In this document: positions 26,481 to 32,550 of the stretch, piece after piece
Numbering within the stretch: position 1 is the stretch's first letter
Layout of the letters: every line of letters begins with the position of its first letter
Source of the DNA: Actinomycetospora sp. NBRC 106375
GTDB taxonomy: Bacteria > Actinomycetota > Actinomycetes > Mycobacteriales > Pseudonocardiaceae
DNA length: 64,000 nucleotides
Assembly: GCF_030269665.1 (NCBI RefSeq)
Contig: NZ_BSTS01000006.1
Coordinates: 124,001-188,000 of the forward strand
Direction: 5' to 3'
Notes under the pieces: model-generated
Databases searched by the model: none
Seen by the model: only the letters and a program-made list of their open reading frames with translations
What the model was told of the DNA's origin: nothing
Program-made: the position numbers and the translations under genes

Positions 26481-26556
26481 GGGGTGTGCGAGCAATGCGG
26501 CTTTGCTGGCGTGTGACGCCAGGATCGCCACATCCTCGCTCGCGCGACACGCCGAG
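26481..26556. repeat. 76-bp inverted repeat, left copy, before hsp20
   Basis: Matches the reverse complement of 27337-27412 at 71 of 76 positions by hand alignment. It contains an internal hairpin CTGGCG-TGTGA-CGCCAG. It lies 33 bases after xylB and about 100 bases before hsp20. The pair brackets hsp20 and its three downstream palindromes. Confidence 0.85.
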
Positions 26557-26600: not shown

Positions 26601-26658
26601 TTGCATGAGTCGAGAGCCCGCAAGGCCGGGCTGCCTTCCCCATCGAGGAGGAACCACC

Positions 26659-27192
26659 ATGAGCACCCTGATCCCCTGGGGCCCGCGCTTCGTCGACCCG
26701 TTCGCCGTCGCTCCCGCCCTGTTCCGCCGCCCCGGAACCGTTCGCCCCGCCGCCTGGTTCGCGCCGACCACCGACGTCGTCCGTGAGGGCGACGACGCCG
26801 TGGTCCGCGTCGAGCTGCCCGGCGTGGACGTCGCCAAGGACGTCACCGTCGAGGTCGACGGCGACCGCCTGACCGTCCGGGGCGAGCGCCGCGACGAGCA
26901 GTCCGGCGAGGGCTACCGGCAGAGCCGCTACGGCTCGTTCCGCCGGAGCTTCACCCTCCCCCAGCACGTCGACGCCGACGCGGTCACCGCGTCCTACGAC
27001 GCCGGTGTGCTGACCCTGCGCGTCGCCGGCGCCCACGCCGAGCCGGCCCAGCCCGGTGCCCGGCGCATCGCCATCGACGGCGTCACCGCCCCAGAGCCCT
27101 CGGACGAGCCCACCGGCTCCAACGAGTCCGGCTCCGACGAGTCCGGCTCCGACGAGTCCGGCTCCGACGAGTCCGGCAGCGCCGCCGCCTGA
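26659..27192 (+). CDS. Small heat-shock protein Hsp20 with ESGSD repeat tail
   Basis: 177 residues. An N-terminal arm carries FVDPFAVAPALFRRPG. The alpha-crystallin domain (about 35-130) begins APTTDVVREGDDAVVRVELPGVD and includes RLTVRGERR, YGSFRRSFTLPQHVDAD and the closing AGVLTLRVAGA (family A-x-x-x-G-V-L). It is an ATP-independent holdase. The C terminus has tandem ESGSD units encoded by a 15-bp DNA repeat, replacing the usual I-x-I ending. ATG at 26659 has a GAGGAGGA site; an upstream ATG at 26503 lies in the inverted repeat and is rejected. A HAIR-like box suggests HspR control. Confidence 0.92.
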   Translation: MSTLIPWGPRFVDPFAVAPALFRRPGTVRPAAWFAPTTDVVREGDDAVVRVELPGVDVAKDVTVEVDGDRLTVRGERRDEQSGEGYRQSRYGSFRRSFTLPQHVDADAVTASYDAGVLTLRVAGAHAEPAQPGARRIAIDGVTAPEPSDEPTGSNESGSDESGSDESGSDESGSAAA

Positions 27193-27336: not shown

Positions 27337-27412
27337 CTCGGCGTGTCGCGTCACCGAGGATGTGGCGATCCTGGCGTCACACGCCAGGAAAGCCGCATTG
27401 CTCGAACACCCC
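27337..27412. repeat. 76-bp inverted repeat, right copy, after hsp20
   Basis: Inverted partner of 26481-26556. It overlaps the 3' end of the SCO6045-like gene, so roughly the last 20 codons and stop of that gene are repeat-derived. No target-site duplication or transposase was seen beside either copy. Confidence 0.85.
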
Positions 27413-27758
27413 GCCAGCCACGACCACGACGACCACGACGACGGCGGCGCGGGGAGGGTGGGACGAGGTCGGCGGCGCGGAGGAGGTCGACGAACGCCGT
27501 CGCCTCGTCGTGCAGCGACGTCCCGGTGCGCCGGGCGTGGGTCCGGATCCAGCCGTCGATGCGCGCGACGAGATCGGCCCCCAGCTGCTCGTGGACCTCC
27601 GCCGGGATCAGGCGCAGGAGCAGCCGGCGTCGTTTCGCGCGCAGGGCGTCGGCCTCGAGGGCCAGGCGCGCGGGGTCGAAGCCGGCCGGGGCGGGGCCGT
27701 CGGCGACGAGCGCGGCGAGCAGCGCGGCCTGGCGCGCCGCGAGGTCCTCGCGGCTCAC
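27351..27758 (-). CDS. SCO6045-C-terminal-like partner protein of the MNIO enzyme
   Basis: 135 residues, Ala/Arg/Leu rich: SREDLAARQAALLAALVADGPAPAGFDPARLALEADALRAKRRR, then helical RLIPAEVHEQLGADLVARIDGWI and TSLHDEATAFVDLLRAADLVP. This resembles the domain that follows the DUF692 domain in Streptomyces SCO6045-type proteins, from memory. In analogous MNIO systems the partner (MbnC or DUF2063) binds the substrate leader. GTG at 27758 overlaps the MNIO stop by four bases. The Arg-rich end (PSPRRRRRGRRGRG onward) is encoded partly by the right inverted repeat, so the original stop may have been lost. Confidence 0.65.
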   Translation of the reverse strand: MSREDLAARQAALLAALVADGPAPAGFDPARLALEADALRAKRRRLLLRLIPAEVHEQLGADLVARIDGWIRTHARRTGTSLHDEATAFVDLLRAADLVPPSPRRRRRGRRGRGWRGVRAMRLSWRVTPGSPHPR

Positions 27759-28597
27759 GCCCGCACCCGCGCGTGCACCGACCGCAGCGCCGCCAGCTCC
27801 GCGGCCAGCTCGTCGTCGGGCGGGTAGCGGTCGTCGCGCTCGAGCAGGACCGCGGGCGGGCGGCGGCGCGCGCAGAGCTCGTCGAGCAGGTCGAGCACCG
27901 GCGGGGTCAGGGGATGCGCGTGGGTGTCGTGGTAGACGCCGTCGCGCTCGACCCCGCCCGCGGCGTGCACGTAGACGACACGCTCCAGCGGCAGCTCGTC
28001 GAGCACCTCGCCCGGGTCCTGGCCCAGGTTCACCGCGCTCGCGTGCAGGTTGGCGACGTCGAGCAGCAGCCACGCCCCGGTCCGCTCGCAGAGCTCGCCC
28101 AGGAACGCGCCCTCGGTCATCGCGTCGTCCGGCCACGCCAGCAGCGGCGCGATGTTCTCGAGCGCGAGGGGCACGCCCAGCTCGGCCTGGGTCGCGCGGA
28201 CGTTGTCGACGACGACCGCGAGCGCCTCCCGGGTGCGCGGCACCGGCAGCAGATGGCCCGACTCGAGCCCGCCCGCCCGCACGAACGCGACGTGGTCGCT
28301 CGCCATCGGGGCGCCGAGGGCGTCGGCCACGGCGGCGAGGTGCCGGACGCGGTCGTGCCGCAGCGGCTCGGCGCCCCCGAGCGACAGCGACACCGCGTGC
28401 GGCAGCACGGGCAGGCCGCGCTCGCGCAGCACGCCGAGGGACGCCGGCAGCTCGTCCGGGTCCAGGTCCTCGGCCACGACCTCGACGAAGTCGACGCCCG
28501 GCAACCGCTCGACGGTCAGGTCGATCTCGCGGCGCCAGCCGATGCCGACCCCGACGGGCCCGCCCGGCAGCGCCGGCGCGTCCGGCGACGGGGTCAT
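27755..28597 (-). CDS. DUF692 / MNIO multinuclear non-haem iron oxygenase
   Basis: 280-residue TIM-barrel protein of the DUF692 family (MbnB, TglH and BufB relatives), which modify Cys residues of ribosomal peptides with two or three iron ions. Family landmarks: GVGIGWRREID, FVEVVAEDL, LPHAVSLSLGGAEPL, ASDHVAFVR with metal His, LALENIAPLL (Glu ligand), LLLDVANLHASAVN (Asp/Asn/His), VVYVHAAGG and DTHAHPLTPPV. ATG at 28597 overlaps the TGA of the upstream Cys/Gly-tailed membrane protein (ATGA), a strong hint that the two act together. The frame extending further upstream is a shadow. Confidence 0.88.
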   Translation of the reverse strand: MTPSPDAPALPGGPVGVGIGWRREIDLTVERLPGVDFVEVVAEDLDPDELPASLGVLRERGLPVLPHAVSLSLGGAEPLRHDRVRHLAAVADALGAPMASDHVAFVRAGGLESGHLLPVPRTREALAVVVDNVRATQAELGVPLALENIAPLLAWPDDAMTEGAFLGELCERTGAWLLLDVANLHASAVNLGQDPGEVLDELPLERVVYVHAAGGVERDGVYHDTHAHPLTPPVLDLLDELCARRRPPAVLLERDDRYPPDDELAAELAALRSVHARVRA

Positions 28598-29514
28598 CCG
28601 CCGCAGCCCCCGCCGCCTCCGCCGCCGCACCCACCGCCGCCACCACCGCAGGACGAGCCGCACGACGACCCGCCGTCGGAACCGCCGCCGTCCCACCCGC
28701 CGCCCCCGCCACCGACCGGCGCGGCGAGCAGTCCGGCGAGCTGCGGGTCCGGGTAGGACGACAGTCCGAAGACCGCGACGAGCCCGGCCACCCCGAGCGA
28801 CCCGGCGAGGACCGCCCCGGGAGCGCGCGCGTGCGCCGGCGCTCCGCCCTGGCGGCTCTGCATCTCCCGCGACCAGGCCTGCGACAGCGTCGCCTTCCCG
28901 CGCGGCGTGACGCGCCGGGTCGAGACGAAGAGCGTCGTGAACGCGACGACGGCGGCGATCACGACCAGGACGACGAGGAAGCCGACGGCCGCGTCGCGCG
29001 CGATGCCCGCCGCCACCCGGGCCACGCCGAGCACGAACACCGCCGCCGCCGCGCCGGTGCCGATCGCCTTCGTCCGGCGCACGGCGGCGGGGTCGTGCAG
29101 CAGGCCGCGGCGCTGGGCGCCCGCCTCCAGGTCGCGGACCGCCGCGGACGGCGTGGTCCGGGCGACGATCCCGGCGGTGGTGGACGGGCGCGCCTCGACC
29201 ACCCCGACGACGGTCTCGTCGAGCTCGCCGATCGGGGGGCGACCCGTGAACGCGAGCCGGCGGTCGGTCGAGACCCGCAGGACACCACCCTCGACGAGCC
29301 GCGCGATCGCCGCCTCGACCAGCCGGCGCCGCCCGCCCGCGAGCAGGGCGAGATCCTCGACGCTCGCGTCCGGTACGGCGGCCTCGCCGTGGTCCCGGGC
29401 GCTGCGTCGGTCGAGTGAACGCCGCAGCACCGGCCCGACGACCGCGGCGGCCACGAGCAGGACCACGTACACGAGCAGGAACAGCGGCCCGGAGATGCCC
29501 CAGGTGGGTCCCAC
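28594..29514 (-). CDS. TIGR04222-type membrane protein with Cys/Gly-rich C-terminal tail
   Basis: 306 residues. An N-terminal helix (ISGPLFLLVYVVLLVAAAVV) is followed by a cytosolic domain (DLALLAGGRRRLVEAAIARLVEGGVL, winged-helix-like), two helices (about 165-210), another helix near 250, and a tail that is almost only Gly, Ser and four Cys: SSCGSSCGGGGGGCGG then a further Gly run and CGG to the end. This matches actinobacterial proteins labelled TIGR04222, as I recall them. GTG at 29514 is chosen for GGAGG five bases upstream. The stop overlaps the MNIO start, so the tail is a plausible substrate for oxidative modification. Confidence 0.8.
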   Translation of the reverse strand: MGPTWGISGPLFLLVYVVLLVAAAVVGPVLRRSLDRRSARDHGEAAVPDASVEDLALLAGGRRRLVEAAIARLVEGGVLRVSTDRRLAFTGRPPIGELDETVVGVVEARPSTTAGIVARTTPSAAVRDLEAGAQRRGLLHDPAAVRRTKAIGTGAAAAVFVLGVARVAAGIARDAAVGFLVVLVVIAAVVAFTTLFVSTRRVTPRGKATLSQAWSREMQSRQGGAPAHARAPGAVLAGSLGVAGLVAVFGLSSYPDPQLAGLLAAPVGGGGGGWDGGGSDGGSSCGSSCGGGGGGCGGGGGGGCGG

Positions 29515-29650: not shown

Positions 29651-31348
29651 TCAGCGGCGCCGGCCCCTCCCGGCACCCGAGCGCGCGGAGTGCGCCGCGG
29701 CGGAGTGCTGCGGGCTCGACGAGCCGGACGCGGACGCGGACGACCCGGACGACGCCGGCGCGCGGCGACCGCCGTGCGACGACGACGACGTCCCCCGGCC
29801 CGGCTCCGCGGGCGCTCCACCGCCACCGCCCCGTCGTCCGCCGCCACGGCGACCCGACCGGCCGGTGCCGGAGGCGCCACCCGAGCCCCCGCCGGACGCG
29901 CCGCCCGAGGCCCCACCCGAGGCCCCGGCGCCGCGGGGACCGCCGGATCCACCCCGCCGCGACGAGCCGCCCGAGCGCCCCGGACGACCCGAGCCCCCGG
30001 ACCGGCTCCCCGCCGCGGGCTGCGGATCGGGCTTGCGGGCCGCGGACGGCGGCCCCTCCTCGGGCGCCACGCGGGGAGCGGGCTCGCCGACCAGGGCCGT
30101 GATCTCCCGGGCGCCCGGCGCCACGTCCACCGGCTTGGCCTTGATGCCGGCCTTCCGCGTCATCGACGCGACCTCGGCCCGCTCGGCCGGTGGCACCAGG
30201 GTCACGACGTCGCCGGCGGACCCGGCGCGCGCCGTGCGCCCGGAGCGGTGGGTGTAGGCCTTGTGCTCGGCGGGCGGGTCGACGTGGACGACGAGGCCGA
30301 CGTCGTCGACGTGGATCCCGCGCGCGGCGATGTCGGTGGCGACGAGCACCCGCACGTCGCCCGCGGCGAAGCCGGCGAGGTTGCGGTCGCGGGCAGGCTG
30401 GGACAGGTTGCCGTGCAGCTCCGTGGCCGGGATGCCCGCCGCGGTGAGCTGGCGGGAGAGCTTGCGCGCCGCGTGCTTGGTGCGGGTGAACAGCATGCTG
30501 CGGCCGTGCCCGGACGCGAGCTCGTGCACCACCGCCGTCCGGTCGGCCGGGTCGACCGTGAAGACGTGGTGGGTCATGTCCGGGACGGGCTCCTCGGCGG
30601 CGTCGACGCTGTGCGTCACCGCGTCGTGGAGGAACTCGCGCACGAGCCGGTCGACCTCGCCGTCGAGGGTGGCCGAGAACAGCAGGCGCTGGCCGTCGCG
30701 GGGCGTGCGGCGCAGCAGGCGGCGCACGGCGGGCAGGAAGCCGAGGTCGCTCATGTGGTCGGCCTCGTCGAGCACGGTCACCTCGACGCGGTCGAGGTCG
30801 ACGAGGCCCTGGTTGATGAGGTCCTCGAGACGGCCGGGGCAGGCGATCAGCAGGTCGACGCCCCGGCGCAGGGCCTCGGCCTGGCGACCCTGCCCGACGC
30901 CGCCGTAGACGACGGTCTGGCGCAGGCCGAGGATCTCGGCGAGCGGGGCGAGGGCGTCGCGGACCTGGCTCGCGAGCTCGCGCGTCGGCAGCAGCACCAG
31001 GCCGCGCGGGCGCTGCGGGACGGTGCGCCCGCCGTGCAGGCGCGTGAGCACCGGCAGGCCGAACGCGAGGGTCTTGCCGCTGCCGGTGCGGCCGCGGCCG
31101 AGCACGTCGCGCCCGGCCAGCGCGTCGCCGATCGCGGCGCACTGAATGGGGGTGGGCTCGGTGATGCCGCGCTCGGCGAGCGCGTCGACGACGGTGCCGG
31201 GGACACCGAGGTCGAGGAACGTCGGGGCGGGACGAGCAGACGTCGTCGGGATGTCGGGAACCTCTCCACGGGGAACAAGGGGCCGCGAGCGTCGGCCCGT
31301 CCGTCGGGGGAGGGAGACCGCGTGGTGCGCGGTGCGCTGACGACCCAC
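29651..31348 (-). CDS. DEAD-box RNA helicase (RhlE/DeaD type)
   Basis: About 565 residues. Q motif FLDLGVPGTVVDALAERGITEPTPIQ, motif I GRTGSGKT, Ia PTRELASQV, II LDEADHM (DEAD), III FSATL, IV-V LFTRTKHAARKL and ATDIAARGIHV, VI YTHRSGRTAR are all present. The C-terminal ~150 residues are Gly/Ser/Arg rich, an RNA-binding extension common in actinobacteria. The start is unsettled: no ATG or GTG lies in frame close to the Q motif, and the nearest GTG is at 31348, adding about 38 basic residues without a clear ribosome binding site. Likely role: rRNA or mRNA remodelling, cold or stress growth. Confidence 0.85.
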   Translation of the reverse strand: MGRQRTAHHAVSLPRRTGRRSRPLVPRGEVPDIPTTSARPAPTFLDLGVPGTVVDALAERGITEPTPIQCAAIGDALAGRDVLGRGRTGSGKTLAFGLPVLTRLHGGRTVPQRPRGLVLLPTRELASQVRDALAPLAEILGLRQTVVYGGVGQGRQAEALRRGVDLLIACPGRLEDLINQGLVDLDRVEVTVLDEADHMSDLGFLPAVRRLLRRTPRDGQRLLFSATLDGEVDRLVREFLHDAVTHSVDAAEEPVPDMTHHVFTVDPADRTAVVHELASGHGRSMLFTRTKHAARKLSRQLTAAGIPATELHGNLSQPARDRNLAGFAAGDVRVLVATDIAARGIHVDDVGLVVHVDPPAEHKAYTHRSGRTARAGSAGDVVTLVPPAERAEVASMTRKAGIKAKPVDVAPGAREITALVGEPAPRVAPEEGPPSAARKPDPQPAAGSRSGGSGRPGRSGGSSRRGGSGGPRGAGASGGASGGASGGGSGGASGTGRSGRRGGGRRGGGGGAPAEPGRGTSSSSHGGRRAPASSGSSASASGSSSPQHSAAAHSARSGAGRGRRR

Positions 31349-31449
31349 GGGCGCCGGTGCGGCGCCGCGTACGGGCTCCAGTCTCCCAGAGATCGACGAC
31401 GGCCGTGGCACGGCGGGGGGTGTCGGTCGTCTCGGGCAGACTGACCGGT

Positions 31450-32550
31450 GTGTCCGGCTGCCGCTGCGAGATCGCCCCGCCGTCGCTGCTGCTGGCCGTG
31501 GCCGAGCGCGGCGATCCCCGGGTCCGCGACGCGGCGCTGCGCACGCTGCTGACCTCCGCGGCGCTGCGCTCGCGACGGTCCTCGCTGGGGCCGACGCTGC
31601 GCCGGCTCGGGATCTCCCCCGCGGACGTGGCGTTCCTGCCCGCGCGGGCCCCCGCGACGGGCCCGGACAACACGGTCTACGACATGGCGGGCGGCGACGA
31701 GGGCTCGCTGCCGGGCCGCCGCGTCCGGGGCTCGGCCGACGCACCGGTCGCGGATACGGCGGTCAACGAGGCGTTCGACGGGGCCGCCAGCACCGCGGCG
31801 TTCTACCGGGACGTGTTCGGCCGCGACTCCATCGACGGCCGCGGGCTCGACCTCGTCTCGTCGGTGCACTTCGGGCAGCGCTACGACAACGCGTTCTGGA
31901 CCGGCGACCAGATGGTCTACGGCGACGGCGGGGGCGGCGTCTTCGCGGCGGGCGCGCTGACGCGAGCGCTCGACGTCGTCGCCCACGAGCTCACCCACGG
32001 CGTCACGCAGTTCGCCGCCGCCCTGCAGTACCGCGGACAGAGCGGGGCGCTCAACGAGTCGTTCTCCGACGTGTTCGGCAGCCTGGTCGCGCAGTGGGCG
32101 CGCGGGCAGGACGCGCGGGCCGCGACGTGGCTGATCGGCGAGGGCACCCTCGAGCCCACGCTCGGCGGCGCCCTGCGCAGCATGATCGCGCCCGGGACGG
32201 CCTTCAGCGGCGACGACCAGCCCGCCGACATGGACGGCTACGCCGACCTGCCCGTCGACGACGACCCGCGCAACGACAACGGCGGCGTGCACGTGAACTC
32301 CGGCATCCCCAACCGCGCCTTCGCCGAGGCGGCCCGCGCCCTCGGCGGTCGCGCGTGGGAGACGGTCGGGCCGGTCTGGTACACGGTGCTCACCGACGGC
32401 CGCCTGCGTCCCACCGCCGACTTCGCGGCCTGCGCGGCGCTGACCGTCACGGTCGCGGGCGAGCGCTACGGCGAGGGCTCGCCGCAGCAGGACGCGGTAC
32501 GCGGCGGCTGGGAGGCGGTGAAGGTCCGGTTGGCCGCGGACCCGCGGTGA
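31450..32550 (+). CDS. Protealysin-like M4 metalloprotease
   Basis: 366 residues, thermolysin family. Zinc site H179-E180-L-T-H183 (VVAHELTHGV), third ligand Glu203 (ALNESFSDVFG), transition-state His281 (GGVHVNSGIPNRAF). There is no secretion signal; the short N-terminal part (CRCEIAPPSLLLAVAERG) resembles the small propeptide of protealysins, which act inside the cell or leave by unknown routes. GTG at 31450 gives that start. It overlaps the emfourin-like inhibitor gene by GTGA. An upstream ATG at 31357 would extend into the helicase promoter and is rejected. Confidence 0.9.
   Translation: MSGCRCEIAPPSLLLAVAERGDPRVRDAALRTLLTSAALRSRRSSLGPTLRRLGISPADVAFLPARAPATGPDNTVYDMAGGDEGSLPGRRVRGSADAPVADTAVNEAFDGAASTAAFYRDVFGRDSIDGRGLDLVSSVHFGQRYDNAFWTGDQMVYGDGGGGVFAAGALTRALDVVAHELTHGVTQFAAALQYRGQSGALNESFSDVFGSLVAQWARGQDARAATWLIGEGTLEPTLGGALRSMIAPGTAFSGDDQPADMDGYADLPVDDDPRNDNGGVHVNSGIPNRAFAEAARALGGRAWETVGPVWYTVLTDGRLRPTADFAACAALTVTVAGERYGEGSPQQDAVRGGWEAVKVRLAADPR

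What the first reader, a model, noticed from the sequence alone, without database searches (positions are those of the whole stretch)
27351..29514. Three-gene MNIO cassette with a membrane-fused Cys/Gly tail as likely substrate
A membrane protein ends in a tail of Gly, Ser and four Cys (SSCGSSCGGGGGGCGG plus a last CGG). Its stop overlaps the start of a DUF692/MNIO enzyme, which in turn overlaps a small SCO6045-like protein. MNIO enzymes oxidatively modify Cys in peptides (methanobactin, bufferin, TglH systems) with a partner protein. Here the substrate would be the C-terminal tail of a polytopic membrane protein rather than a free peptide, giving a membrane-tethered modified metal-binding or redox tail. 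Seen: gene order, overlaps, tail. Known: MNIO chemistry. Inferred: the modification and its role.
Basis: partly seen in the sequence, partly recalled or inferred. Interest (0 to 1): 0.82.

Follow-up and report, generated by a model that had tools for sequence, protein, structure and literature searches.

The report
MNIO cassette with membrane Cys-Gly tail
Three overlapping genes very probably make an iron enzyme, its small helper, and a membrane protein whose cysteine-glycine tail they modify; this gene set has been described in print, but where the tail sits and what it does may differ from what was proposed.

Summary
On the minus strand of an Actinomycetospora-like genome lie a TIGR04222 membrane protein ending in a Gly/Ser tail with four Cys, a DUF692/MNIO enzyme and a small third protein, joined by 4-bp stop-start overlaps. 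The main interpretation, TIGR04222 tails as MNIO substrates with a "PME-type 2" partner, is already published (PMC12452194), so the locus is a new member of a known kind. Added here: the arrangement recurs in 78 of 80 (upstream) and 80 of 80 (downstream) related loci; the third protein is DUF2063-like and is fused to the MNIO in 32 of 94 loci; tail Cys follow MNIO presence (78 of 90 genomes with a linked MNIO, 2 of 30 without), though a tree-aware test is not significant; the membrane protein carries a GPP34/GOLPH3-like domain; charge evidence puts that domain, and less surely the tail, in the cytosol, against the published periplasmic placement; in 65 of 80 relatives (not here) msrB lies directly upstream, and SCO6045 is H2O2-induced in print. 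A thiol/peroxide role is at least as likely as copper handling. Modification itself is unproven.

The parts
28594..29514 (-). TIGR04222 membrane protein (T), 306 aa, GTG start, C-terminal Cys/Gly/Ser tail; proposed MNIO substrate
   Evidence: 88 of 88 members of the alignment, window protein included, match TIGR04222
29425..29490 (-). TM1 of T (residues 11-32 of P0001); N-terminus predicted outside
   Evidence: AlphaFold helix 11-44; hydropathy and charge
29074..29388 (-). GPP34/GOLPH3-like domain of T (residues 45-149), predicted cytosolic
   Evidence: hhalign against 26 GPP34 proteins: probability 93.0, E 3.4e-07 for a single comparison; VIA-align GOLPH3 Z 8.4, 148 residues, rmsd 4.9 over model 49-269
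28927..29073 (-). TM2-TM3 helical hairpin of T (residues about 150-198)
   Evidence: AlphaFold helices 144-174 and 180-197; hydropathy
28765..28821 (-). Hydrophobic C-terminal segment (residues 234-252): fourth TM or last helix of the GPP34-like fold; decides the side of the tail
   Evidence: AlphaFold helix of 9 residues only (243-251); KD-TM-like in 18% of 88 sequences, but KD 2.06 in the window's own protein and not told apart from TM1/TM2 by run length
28597..28725 (-). Gly/Ser tail with four Cys, disordered (block pLDDT about 39-52)
27755..28597 (-). MNIO / DUF692 enzyme (M), 280 aa
   Evidence: PF05114 E 3.7e-78; H67, H102, E147, D180, D224, H226, E253 in 81 of 81 sequences
27351..27758 (-). 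Small DUF2063-like MNIO partner (P), 135 aa: five helices in residues 3-95, then an Arg-rich low-confidence end
   Evidence: its family is fused to MNIO in 32 of 94 loci

Best explanation
The cassette is a TIGR04222-MNIO-partner system. The MNIO (M), helped by the small DUF2063-like protein (P), oxidises Cys residues in the Gly/Ser tail of the membrane protein (T), probably to ring or related groups as in bufferins and oxazolins. T is anchored by three (perhaps four) transmembrane helices with a GPP34/GOLPH3-like domain in the cytosol, and its tail more likely than not stays on the cytosolic face, so that M and P can reach it without an export step. The modified tail is then a membrane-tethered thiol-derived site; from neighbours in relatives and published expression data it serves peroxide/redox or haem-iron stress at least as likely as copper. 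Shown here: gene order, overlaps, conservation, MNIO residues, partner relationship, M-P fusion, Cys-MNIO co-occurrence. Inferred: the modification, its chemistry, the side of the tail, the physiological role.
For: Overlapping genes; T upstream in 78 of 80 and P downstream in 80 of 80 loci. T and M co-occur: 30 of 31 T-bearing among 61 relatives; in 393 class genomes 83 of the 113 that I read off the list as T-bearing have M, against 15 of the other 280. Tail Cys follow MNIO: 78 of 90 genomes linked, 2 of 30 without MNIO; in family f96 14 of 14 against 0 of 16; Gly-rich tails 77 of 78 against 1 of 15. In the 88 motif-bearing linked tails Cys are preceded by G/S in 407 and followed by G/S in 423 of 440. 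Partner: at E up to 10, 22 of 57 family members list PF09836, best E 5.5e-07 and over its cut-off (L085, 30.2 against 27.2 bits); fused to M in 32 of 94 loci. Topology: K/R density 0.22 on the predicted cytosolic flanks against 0.05 on the outer ones, same direction in the 73 of 88 sequences that could be scored; GPP34 match. Redox: msrB 65 of 80; SCO6045 3.01-fold up with H2O2, deregulated in the mutant of the HbpS-SenS-SenR system (PMC4991794 Table 1).
Against: No modified TIGR04222 protein appears in the papers seen. The tree-aware test is not significant: 6 MNIO changes on the T tree, 5 independent pairs, of which on average 0.7 agree, 0.0 disagree and 4.3 do not differ, so the small Fisher p-values mostly reflect shared ancestry. 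Twelve of 90 linked genomes, 10 of them in family f18, lack a motif-bearing tail in the copies read; beside those 10 M-P fusions I saw no convincing other Cys-tailed ORF, so such MNIOs are kept where no Cys tail is seen. Motif-bearing T copies also lie unlinked in 10 of 17 genomes whose MNIO is elsewhere or on another contig. Most of the 22 PF09836 hits are weak; the window's P has none, and its family against six typical DUF2063 proteins gives hhalign probability 35.8, E 3.8e-04; fold searches with P found nothing. GOLPH3 is not among the 26 Foldseek rows for T, and a VIA Z of 8.4 is within what unrelated helical models reach by the tool's own note. A run-length measure does not set the possible fourth TM apart: runs of 17 or more residues free of D,E,K,R,N,Q,H,P occur in 29 of 88 there, 27 in TM1, 10 in TM2, 48 in TM3, and the window's own segment is hydrophobic enough (KD 2.06). 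msrB and hemQ were not found in this window, and their linkage may be mere conserved synteny.
Confidence: 0.57

Rival explanations
1. As published: the Cys tail lies outside the membrane (fourth TM helix present), is modified before export of the C-terminus, and acts as a surface metal chelator like bufferins.
For: PMC12452194 states this from AlphaFold2 topology of selected members. In the window's own protein residues 234-252 are hydrophobic enough for a TM (KD 2.06, a 22-residue run without charged or polar residues), and by run length this segment is no worse than TM1 or TM2 across the family (29, 27 and 10 of 88).
Against: By mean hydropathy 18% of 88 sequences have a TM-like segment there against 82-88% for TM1-3 (segments under 19 residues count as not TM-like); AlphaFold gives a 9-residue helix; the segment falls where the last GPP34 helix would be, although the C-terminal part alone has no significant profile match (E 0.38).
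Confidence: 0.33
2. The tail Cys are used unmodified (metal binding or disulfides) and the MNIO-partner pair modifies another substrate.
For: Cys-tailed T copies exist far from MNIO genes, and MNIO-partner fusions exist beside T copies without tails. No tree-aware support for coupling.
Against: The T stop lies 60 bp or less before the MNIO domain start in 63 of 78 loci; 14 of 15 Gly-rich tails in genomes without MNIO lack the Cys motifs.
Confidence: 0.25
3. The low-complexity tail is a neutral expansion of G+C-rich codons; Cys codons arise by drift and the operon has an unrelated role.
For: The tail is a low-complexity run of G+C-rich codons, lengths vary, and 12 of 177 TIGR04222-like frames have no Cys in the last 70 residues.
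Against: One tail Cys column (C298) is at least 90% conserved in the 88-row alignment, though low-complexity columns align loosely; 14 of 15 Gly-rich tails in genomes without MNIO lack the Cys motifs; 49 of 88 motif-bearing linked tails end in CGG.
Confidence: 0.05

Closest known systems
TIGR04222-MNIO-PME-type 2 gene clusters (Antoine et al. 2025, PMC12452194)
   Same: Same families, gene order substrate-MNIO-partner, Cys/Gly/Ser C-terminal tail, Actinomycetota; their PME-type 2 model A comes from Saccharothrix sp. NRRL B-16314, the strain of locus L107 here (that it is the same protein is inferred from strain and small size, 115 aa in print).
   Different: They place the tail and large domains in the periplasm, find partners in at least 10% of TIGR04222 clusters, and discuss copper and other metals. 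Here the partner family is present in 80 of 80 loci of this clade and often fused to the MNIO elsewhere, the domain is GPP34-like and cytosolic by charge, and neighbours in relatives point to peroxide.
Bufferins (BufA-BufB-BufC) and oxazolins (HvfA-HvfB-HvfC)
   Same: MNIO plus DUF2063-type partner acting on Cys (PMC12452194); P0002 scores 185 bits against the BufB model (cut-off 310).
   Different: Here the proposed substrate is a membrane protein, not a small secreted peptide; the partner shows no RRE domain.
MbnB-MbnC methanobactin and TglH-TglI systems
   Same: The conserved His/Asp/Glu of M align with the solved MNIO chains 8hci and 7dz9 (that 8hci is TglH is recalled).
   Different: Free peptide or carrier-linked substrate and own partner families (recalled).
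GPP34 / GOLPH3 family
   Same: Residues 45-149 of T share a profile (E 3.4e-07) and the model aligns with GOLPH3 over 148 residues.
   Different: T has TM anchors, a helical hairpin after the matched stretch, and a Cys tail; 3 of 88 family members list PF05719, only weakly (best E 0.01).

Membership tests
TIGR04222 (NCBIfam near_uncomplex) | Score over curated cut-off (43 bits) | tested here: met
   111.1 bits, E 6e-32
MNIO (PF05114) | Score over cut-off (25 bits) | tested here: met
   262.9 bits
MNIO (PF05114) | Conserved metal-ligand His/Asp/Glu (ligand assignment recalled; positions align with solved MNIO chains) | tested here: met
   H67, H102, E147, D180, D224, H226, E253 in 81 of 81; D101 in 78 of 81
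MNIO (PF05114) | Bound iron and oxidative activity | not testable with these tools
   needs protein
Bufferin maturase BufB (NF050167) | Score over equivalog cut-off 310 | tested here: not met
   185.1 bits
PME-type 2 / DUF2063-like MNIO partner | No DUF2063 signature of its own but related to DUF2063 | tested here: met
   Window protein: no Pfam hit; at E up to 10, 22 of 57 family members list PF09836, most weakly, L085 at 30.2 bits over cut-off 27.2; profile comparison weak, 35.8%. The paper's own test (HHpred to 3dee/8hi7) was not run
PME-type 2 / DUF2063-like MNIO partner | Gene follows or is fused to the MNIO gene | tested here: met
   80 of 80 loci downstream; 61 separate, 32 fused, 1 without of 94
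PME-type 1 (DUF2063 + RRE, about 260 aa) | Full RRE domain after DUF2063 | tested here: not met
   135 aa; no helix or strand after residue 95 in the model, pLDDT 53-68 there
RiPP precursor | Post-translationally modified core | not testable with these tools
   no mass data
GPP34 (PF05719) | Score over Pfam cut-off | tested here: not met
   Window protein not listed; 3 of 88 members listed, best E 0.01
GPP34 (PF05719) | Shared profile or fold (distant homology) | tested here: met
   hhalign probability 90.8 and 93.0, two unrelated controls 0.3 each, C-terminal part alone 0.2; GOLPH3 is the top two VIA rows, Z 8.4 and 8.3, rmsd 4.9, next row 7.5, but absent from the Foldseek list

The most novel reading that the evidence does not exclude
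TIGR04222 proteins are membrane-anchored relatives of GOLPH3 whose Cys-Gly tail is on the cytosolic face and is modified in place by an MNIO with a minimal DUF2063 partner (often one fused polypeptide), giving a membrane-tethered, peroxide-linked thiol-derived site rather than an exported copper chelator.
Probability: 0.3. Interest if true: 0.75.

Novelty: new member of a known kind. Interest (0 to 1): 0.5.

Why it matters
MNIO enzymes are known for modifying small peptides. A case in which the substrate is the tail of an integral membrane protein, kept on the cytosolic side, would extend the chemistry to ordinary proteins and change what these systems are thought to do in many actinobacteria. 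The fusion of enzyme and partner in one polypeptide offers a single-protein reagent with which to test the modification.

Tried and rejected
Fold search of the partner model: Foldseek best E 4.4, VIA-align best Z 3.7, nothing usable; known MNIO partners are not in those lists, which excludes nothing. Foldseek with the T model: best E 1.0, no GOLPH3 among 26 rows. Profile search of the partner against PDB sequences: none up to E 10. The T profile against PDB sequences gave low-complexity hits to the tail and weak CRP-type regulator hits (E 0.42-0.49); a winged-helix/RRE reading of the T domain was considered and set aside for the better GPP34 match. Looking for another Cys-rich substrate beside tail-less MNIO-partner fusions found none convincing by eye (25 loci scanned, six listed in full). 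Paper searches for this locus, SCO6045, its neighbours or GPP34 in bacteria gave PMC12452194 as the one paper seen that joins TIGR04222 with MNIO; the library holds open-licence papers only; one search was spoilt by word stems ('buffering'). Fisher tests are quoted as counts, since one search shows few independent events.

Rows and limits: 3 of 174 T places ran off contig ends and were dropped. Of 113 class genomes that I read off as over the cut-off (its own tally says 114), 11 were not fetched (G641, G648, G565, G452, G702, G605, G621, G497, G505, G634, G380); some second copies and fragments in fetched genomes were not fetched either. The TIGR04222 scans scored only part of their first-look candidates (up to 38, 9 and 7 a genome), so absence of T is less sure than presence. 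The two no-MNIO genomes that score are G407 (T ends about 140 bp from a contig end, where an MNIO would lie) and G489 (frame reads on past a Gly/Pro stretch). G genomes of the window's genus overlap the named loci L061-L065 and L131 (shared contig lengths), so the two sets are not independent.
Full report
What is there. The window lies in a 6.8 Mb genome whose nearest named relatives are five Actinomycetospora records (87-89% MNIO identity). Three minus-strand genes follow each other with 4-bp overlaps: T (29514..28594), M (28597..27755) and P (27758..27351). T is a TIGR04222 membrane protein (E 6e-32) ending in a Gly/Ser tail with four Cys. M is an MNIO/DUF692 enzyme (PF05114 E 3.7e-78). P has no Pfam match by itself. 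The genome search found one copy each of PF05114 and TIGR04222.

Conservation. A scan of named bacterial genomes with M returned 80 loci (the best 80 of 172). T-family genes lie upstream in 78 and P-family genes downstream in 80; in the two without T the MNIO match starts 50 bp (L120) and 351 bp (L139) from the contig end. T stops 60 bp or less before the MNIO domain in 63 of 78 loci, and the P domain starts within -30 to +60 bp of the MNIO stop in 76 of 80. Up to six T copies occur per locus. Of 177 T-like frames 165 have Cys in the last 70 residues.

Prior art. Antoine et al. 2025 (PMC12452194; abstract and outline, passages, and section 18 seen) already describe TIGR04222 proteins as putative MNIO substrates with C-proximal Cys in Ser/Gly regions, note that only a subset is MNIO-linked, and define PME-type 2 partners, including a 115-residue one from Saccharothrix sp. 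NRRL B-16314, the strain of locus L107 here. They place the tail in the periplasm and report partners in at least 10% of TIGR04222 clusters. The locus is therefore a new member of a published kind. A 2016 Pseudonocardia paper (PMC5183585, one passage) mentions a TIGR04222 peptide in a bacteriocin-type cluster.

Do tail Cys go with MNIO? I listed TIGR04222 and PF05114 in the same genomes: 61 relatives (31 T over cut-off, 31 M, 30 both), 296 of the phylum (11 T, 15 M, 10 both), and 393 of the class (113 T as I read the list, 98 M, 83 both). I then read 171 T copies to their stop. With an MNIO within 12 kb, 78 of 90 genomes have a copy with at least two [GS]C[GS] motifs; with an MNIO elsewhere or on another contig, 10 of 17; with none found, 2 of 30, both explainable (contig end; frame read-through). 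Within one family (f96) it is 14 of 14 against 0 of 16. Of Gly-rich tails, 77 of 78 linked ones carry the motifs, 1 of 15 in genomes without MNIO. Against this, a tree of 161 T domains shows only 6 MNIO changes and 5 independent pairs, of which on average 0.7 go the same way, 0.0 the other way and 4.3 do not differ; not significant. The association is consistent but rests on few independent events. It has exceptions: 12 linked genomes without a motif-bearing tail, 10 of them in family f18, where a tail-less T sits beside an MNIO-partner fusion.

The partner. At E up to 10, 22 of 57 P-family members list Pfam DUF2063 (PF09836), most of them weakly; the best (L085) reaches 30.2 bits over the 27.2 cut-off and spans the whole domain. 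A profile comparison with six typical DUF2063 proteins is weak (35.8%, E 3.8e-04). The window protein models as five helices in residues 3-95 followed by a low-confidence end, that is, without room for the RRE domain. In 32 of 94 MNIO loci the P domain lies in the same reading frame behind the MNIO domain: 22 of 25 in family f18 (unnamed; probably Streptomycetaceae, inferred), 9 of 11 in f97, 1 of 1 in f9, 0 of 57 elsewhere; one locus has no P. Fusion plus adjacency make P the MNIO partner with good confidence. A search of PMC12452194 for 'fusion', 'fused' and 'chimaer' (12 of 13 places shown) showed no MNIO-partner fusion; supplements were not seen.

The membrane protein. AlphaFold with an 88-row alignment (mean pLDDT 85.1) gives a long first helix, a globular part, a helical hairpin, a short C-terminal helix pair and a low-confidence tail. 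VIA-align ranks GOLPH3 first and second (Z 8.4 and 8.3, 148 and 144 residues, rmsd 4.9; next row 7.5). That is a middling score and Foldseek does not list it, so I tested it by sequence: the T profile against 26 actinobacterial GPP34 proteins gives hhalign probability 90.8, E 1.2e-06, and residues 45-149 alone 93.0, E 3.4e-07, while two unrelated pairings give 0.3. The C-terminal part alone is not significant (E 0.38). The helical hairpin follows the matched GPP34 stretch, near the loop that dips into the membrane in GOLPH3 (the role of that loop is recalled).

Which side is the tail on? K/R density is 0.22 beside the globular domain and after TM3, and 0.05 at the N-terminus and in the TM2-TM3 loop, in the same direction in all 73 of 88 sequences that had enough residues. 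That puts the domain in the cytosol. A fourth TM would carry the tail out again. By mean hydropathy the candidate segment is TM-like in 18% of sequences (82-88% for TM1-3), and it is a 9-residue helix in the model. But by length of runs free of polar residues it does not differ from TM1 and TM2 (29, 27 and 10 of 88; TM3 48), and in the window's own protein it is hydrophobic (KD 2.06). I favour a cytosolic tail for the family (about 0.55) and call the window's own case open. This goes against the published placement and is directly testable.

Likely role. In 65 of 80 named loci (15 genera) msrB (TIGR00357) lies on the same strand directly upstream of the first T (median 237 bp; 59 of 65 within 300 bp). 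It was not found in the window or in the six Actinomycetospora loci, one of which (L065) lacks upstream sequence. hemQ, the H2O2-dependent haem synthase (NF042928), lies within the fetched flanks in 42 of 80 loci, on the opposite strand in 41, and in 22 of the 25 f18 MNIO loci. In S. coelicolor the protoporphyrinogen oxidase and the chlorite-dismutase-type protein (the hemQ family, recalled) are SCO6041 and SCO6042 (PMC5069765, passages), and SCO6045 is one of 28 genes up-regulated by H2O2 (3.01-fold), all deregulated in the mutant of the HbpS-SenS-SenR system, with cysteine synthesis genes among them (PMC4991794, section 20 part 1). Together these favour a peroxide/thiol role at least as much as copper, without proof.

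Verdict. Observation confirmed; interpretation plausible and already in print; the partner evidence is broader than published, and tail side and role are open and may differ from the published view.

Noticed in passing
window 27371-27396 and 26497-26522: A dispersed element of about 65 bp around the palindrome CTGGCGTNNNACGCCAG; 56 exact-core copies are listed in the genome and none of the reversed control pattern. One copy lies inside the 3' end of the partner gene and may have lengthened its reading frame. Among the other loci held it was seen only in A. lutea (L061 and the same contig as G012).
   Followed up: partly
L221, L225, L226, L339 and other f18 loci: MNIO-partner fusions followed by a TIGR04222 protein without any Cys tail (in the loci listed, with a membrane-type protein between); the substrate there is unknown.
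   Followed up: partly
L061-L140, upstream of the first TIGR04222 gene: msrB directly upstream in 65 of 80 loci, and a small one-TM protein without NCBIfam hit (104 aa representative) in 64 of 80.
   Followed up: partly
L198, L199 (G025), L196 (G024): TIGR04222 copies with 5-10 Cys in the tail on contigs other than that of the genome's MNIO gene.
   Followed up: no
window 26650-27192 (+) and 29651-31573 (-): Flanking genes resemble a small heat-shock protein with a repeated SGSDE end and a DEAD-box RNA helicase with a Gly/Arg/Ser-rich end (scores below the equivalog cut-offs). Whether they flank the cassette in relatives was not tested.
   Followed up: no
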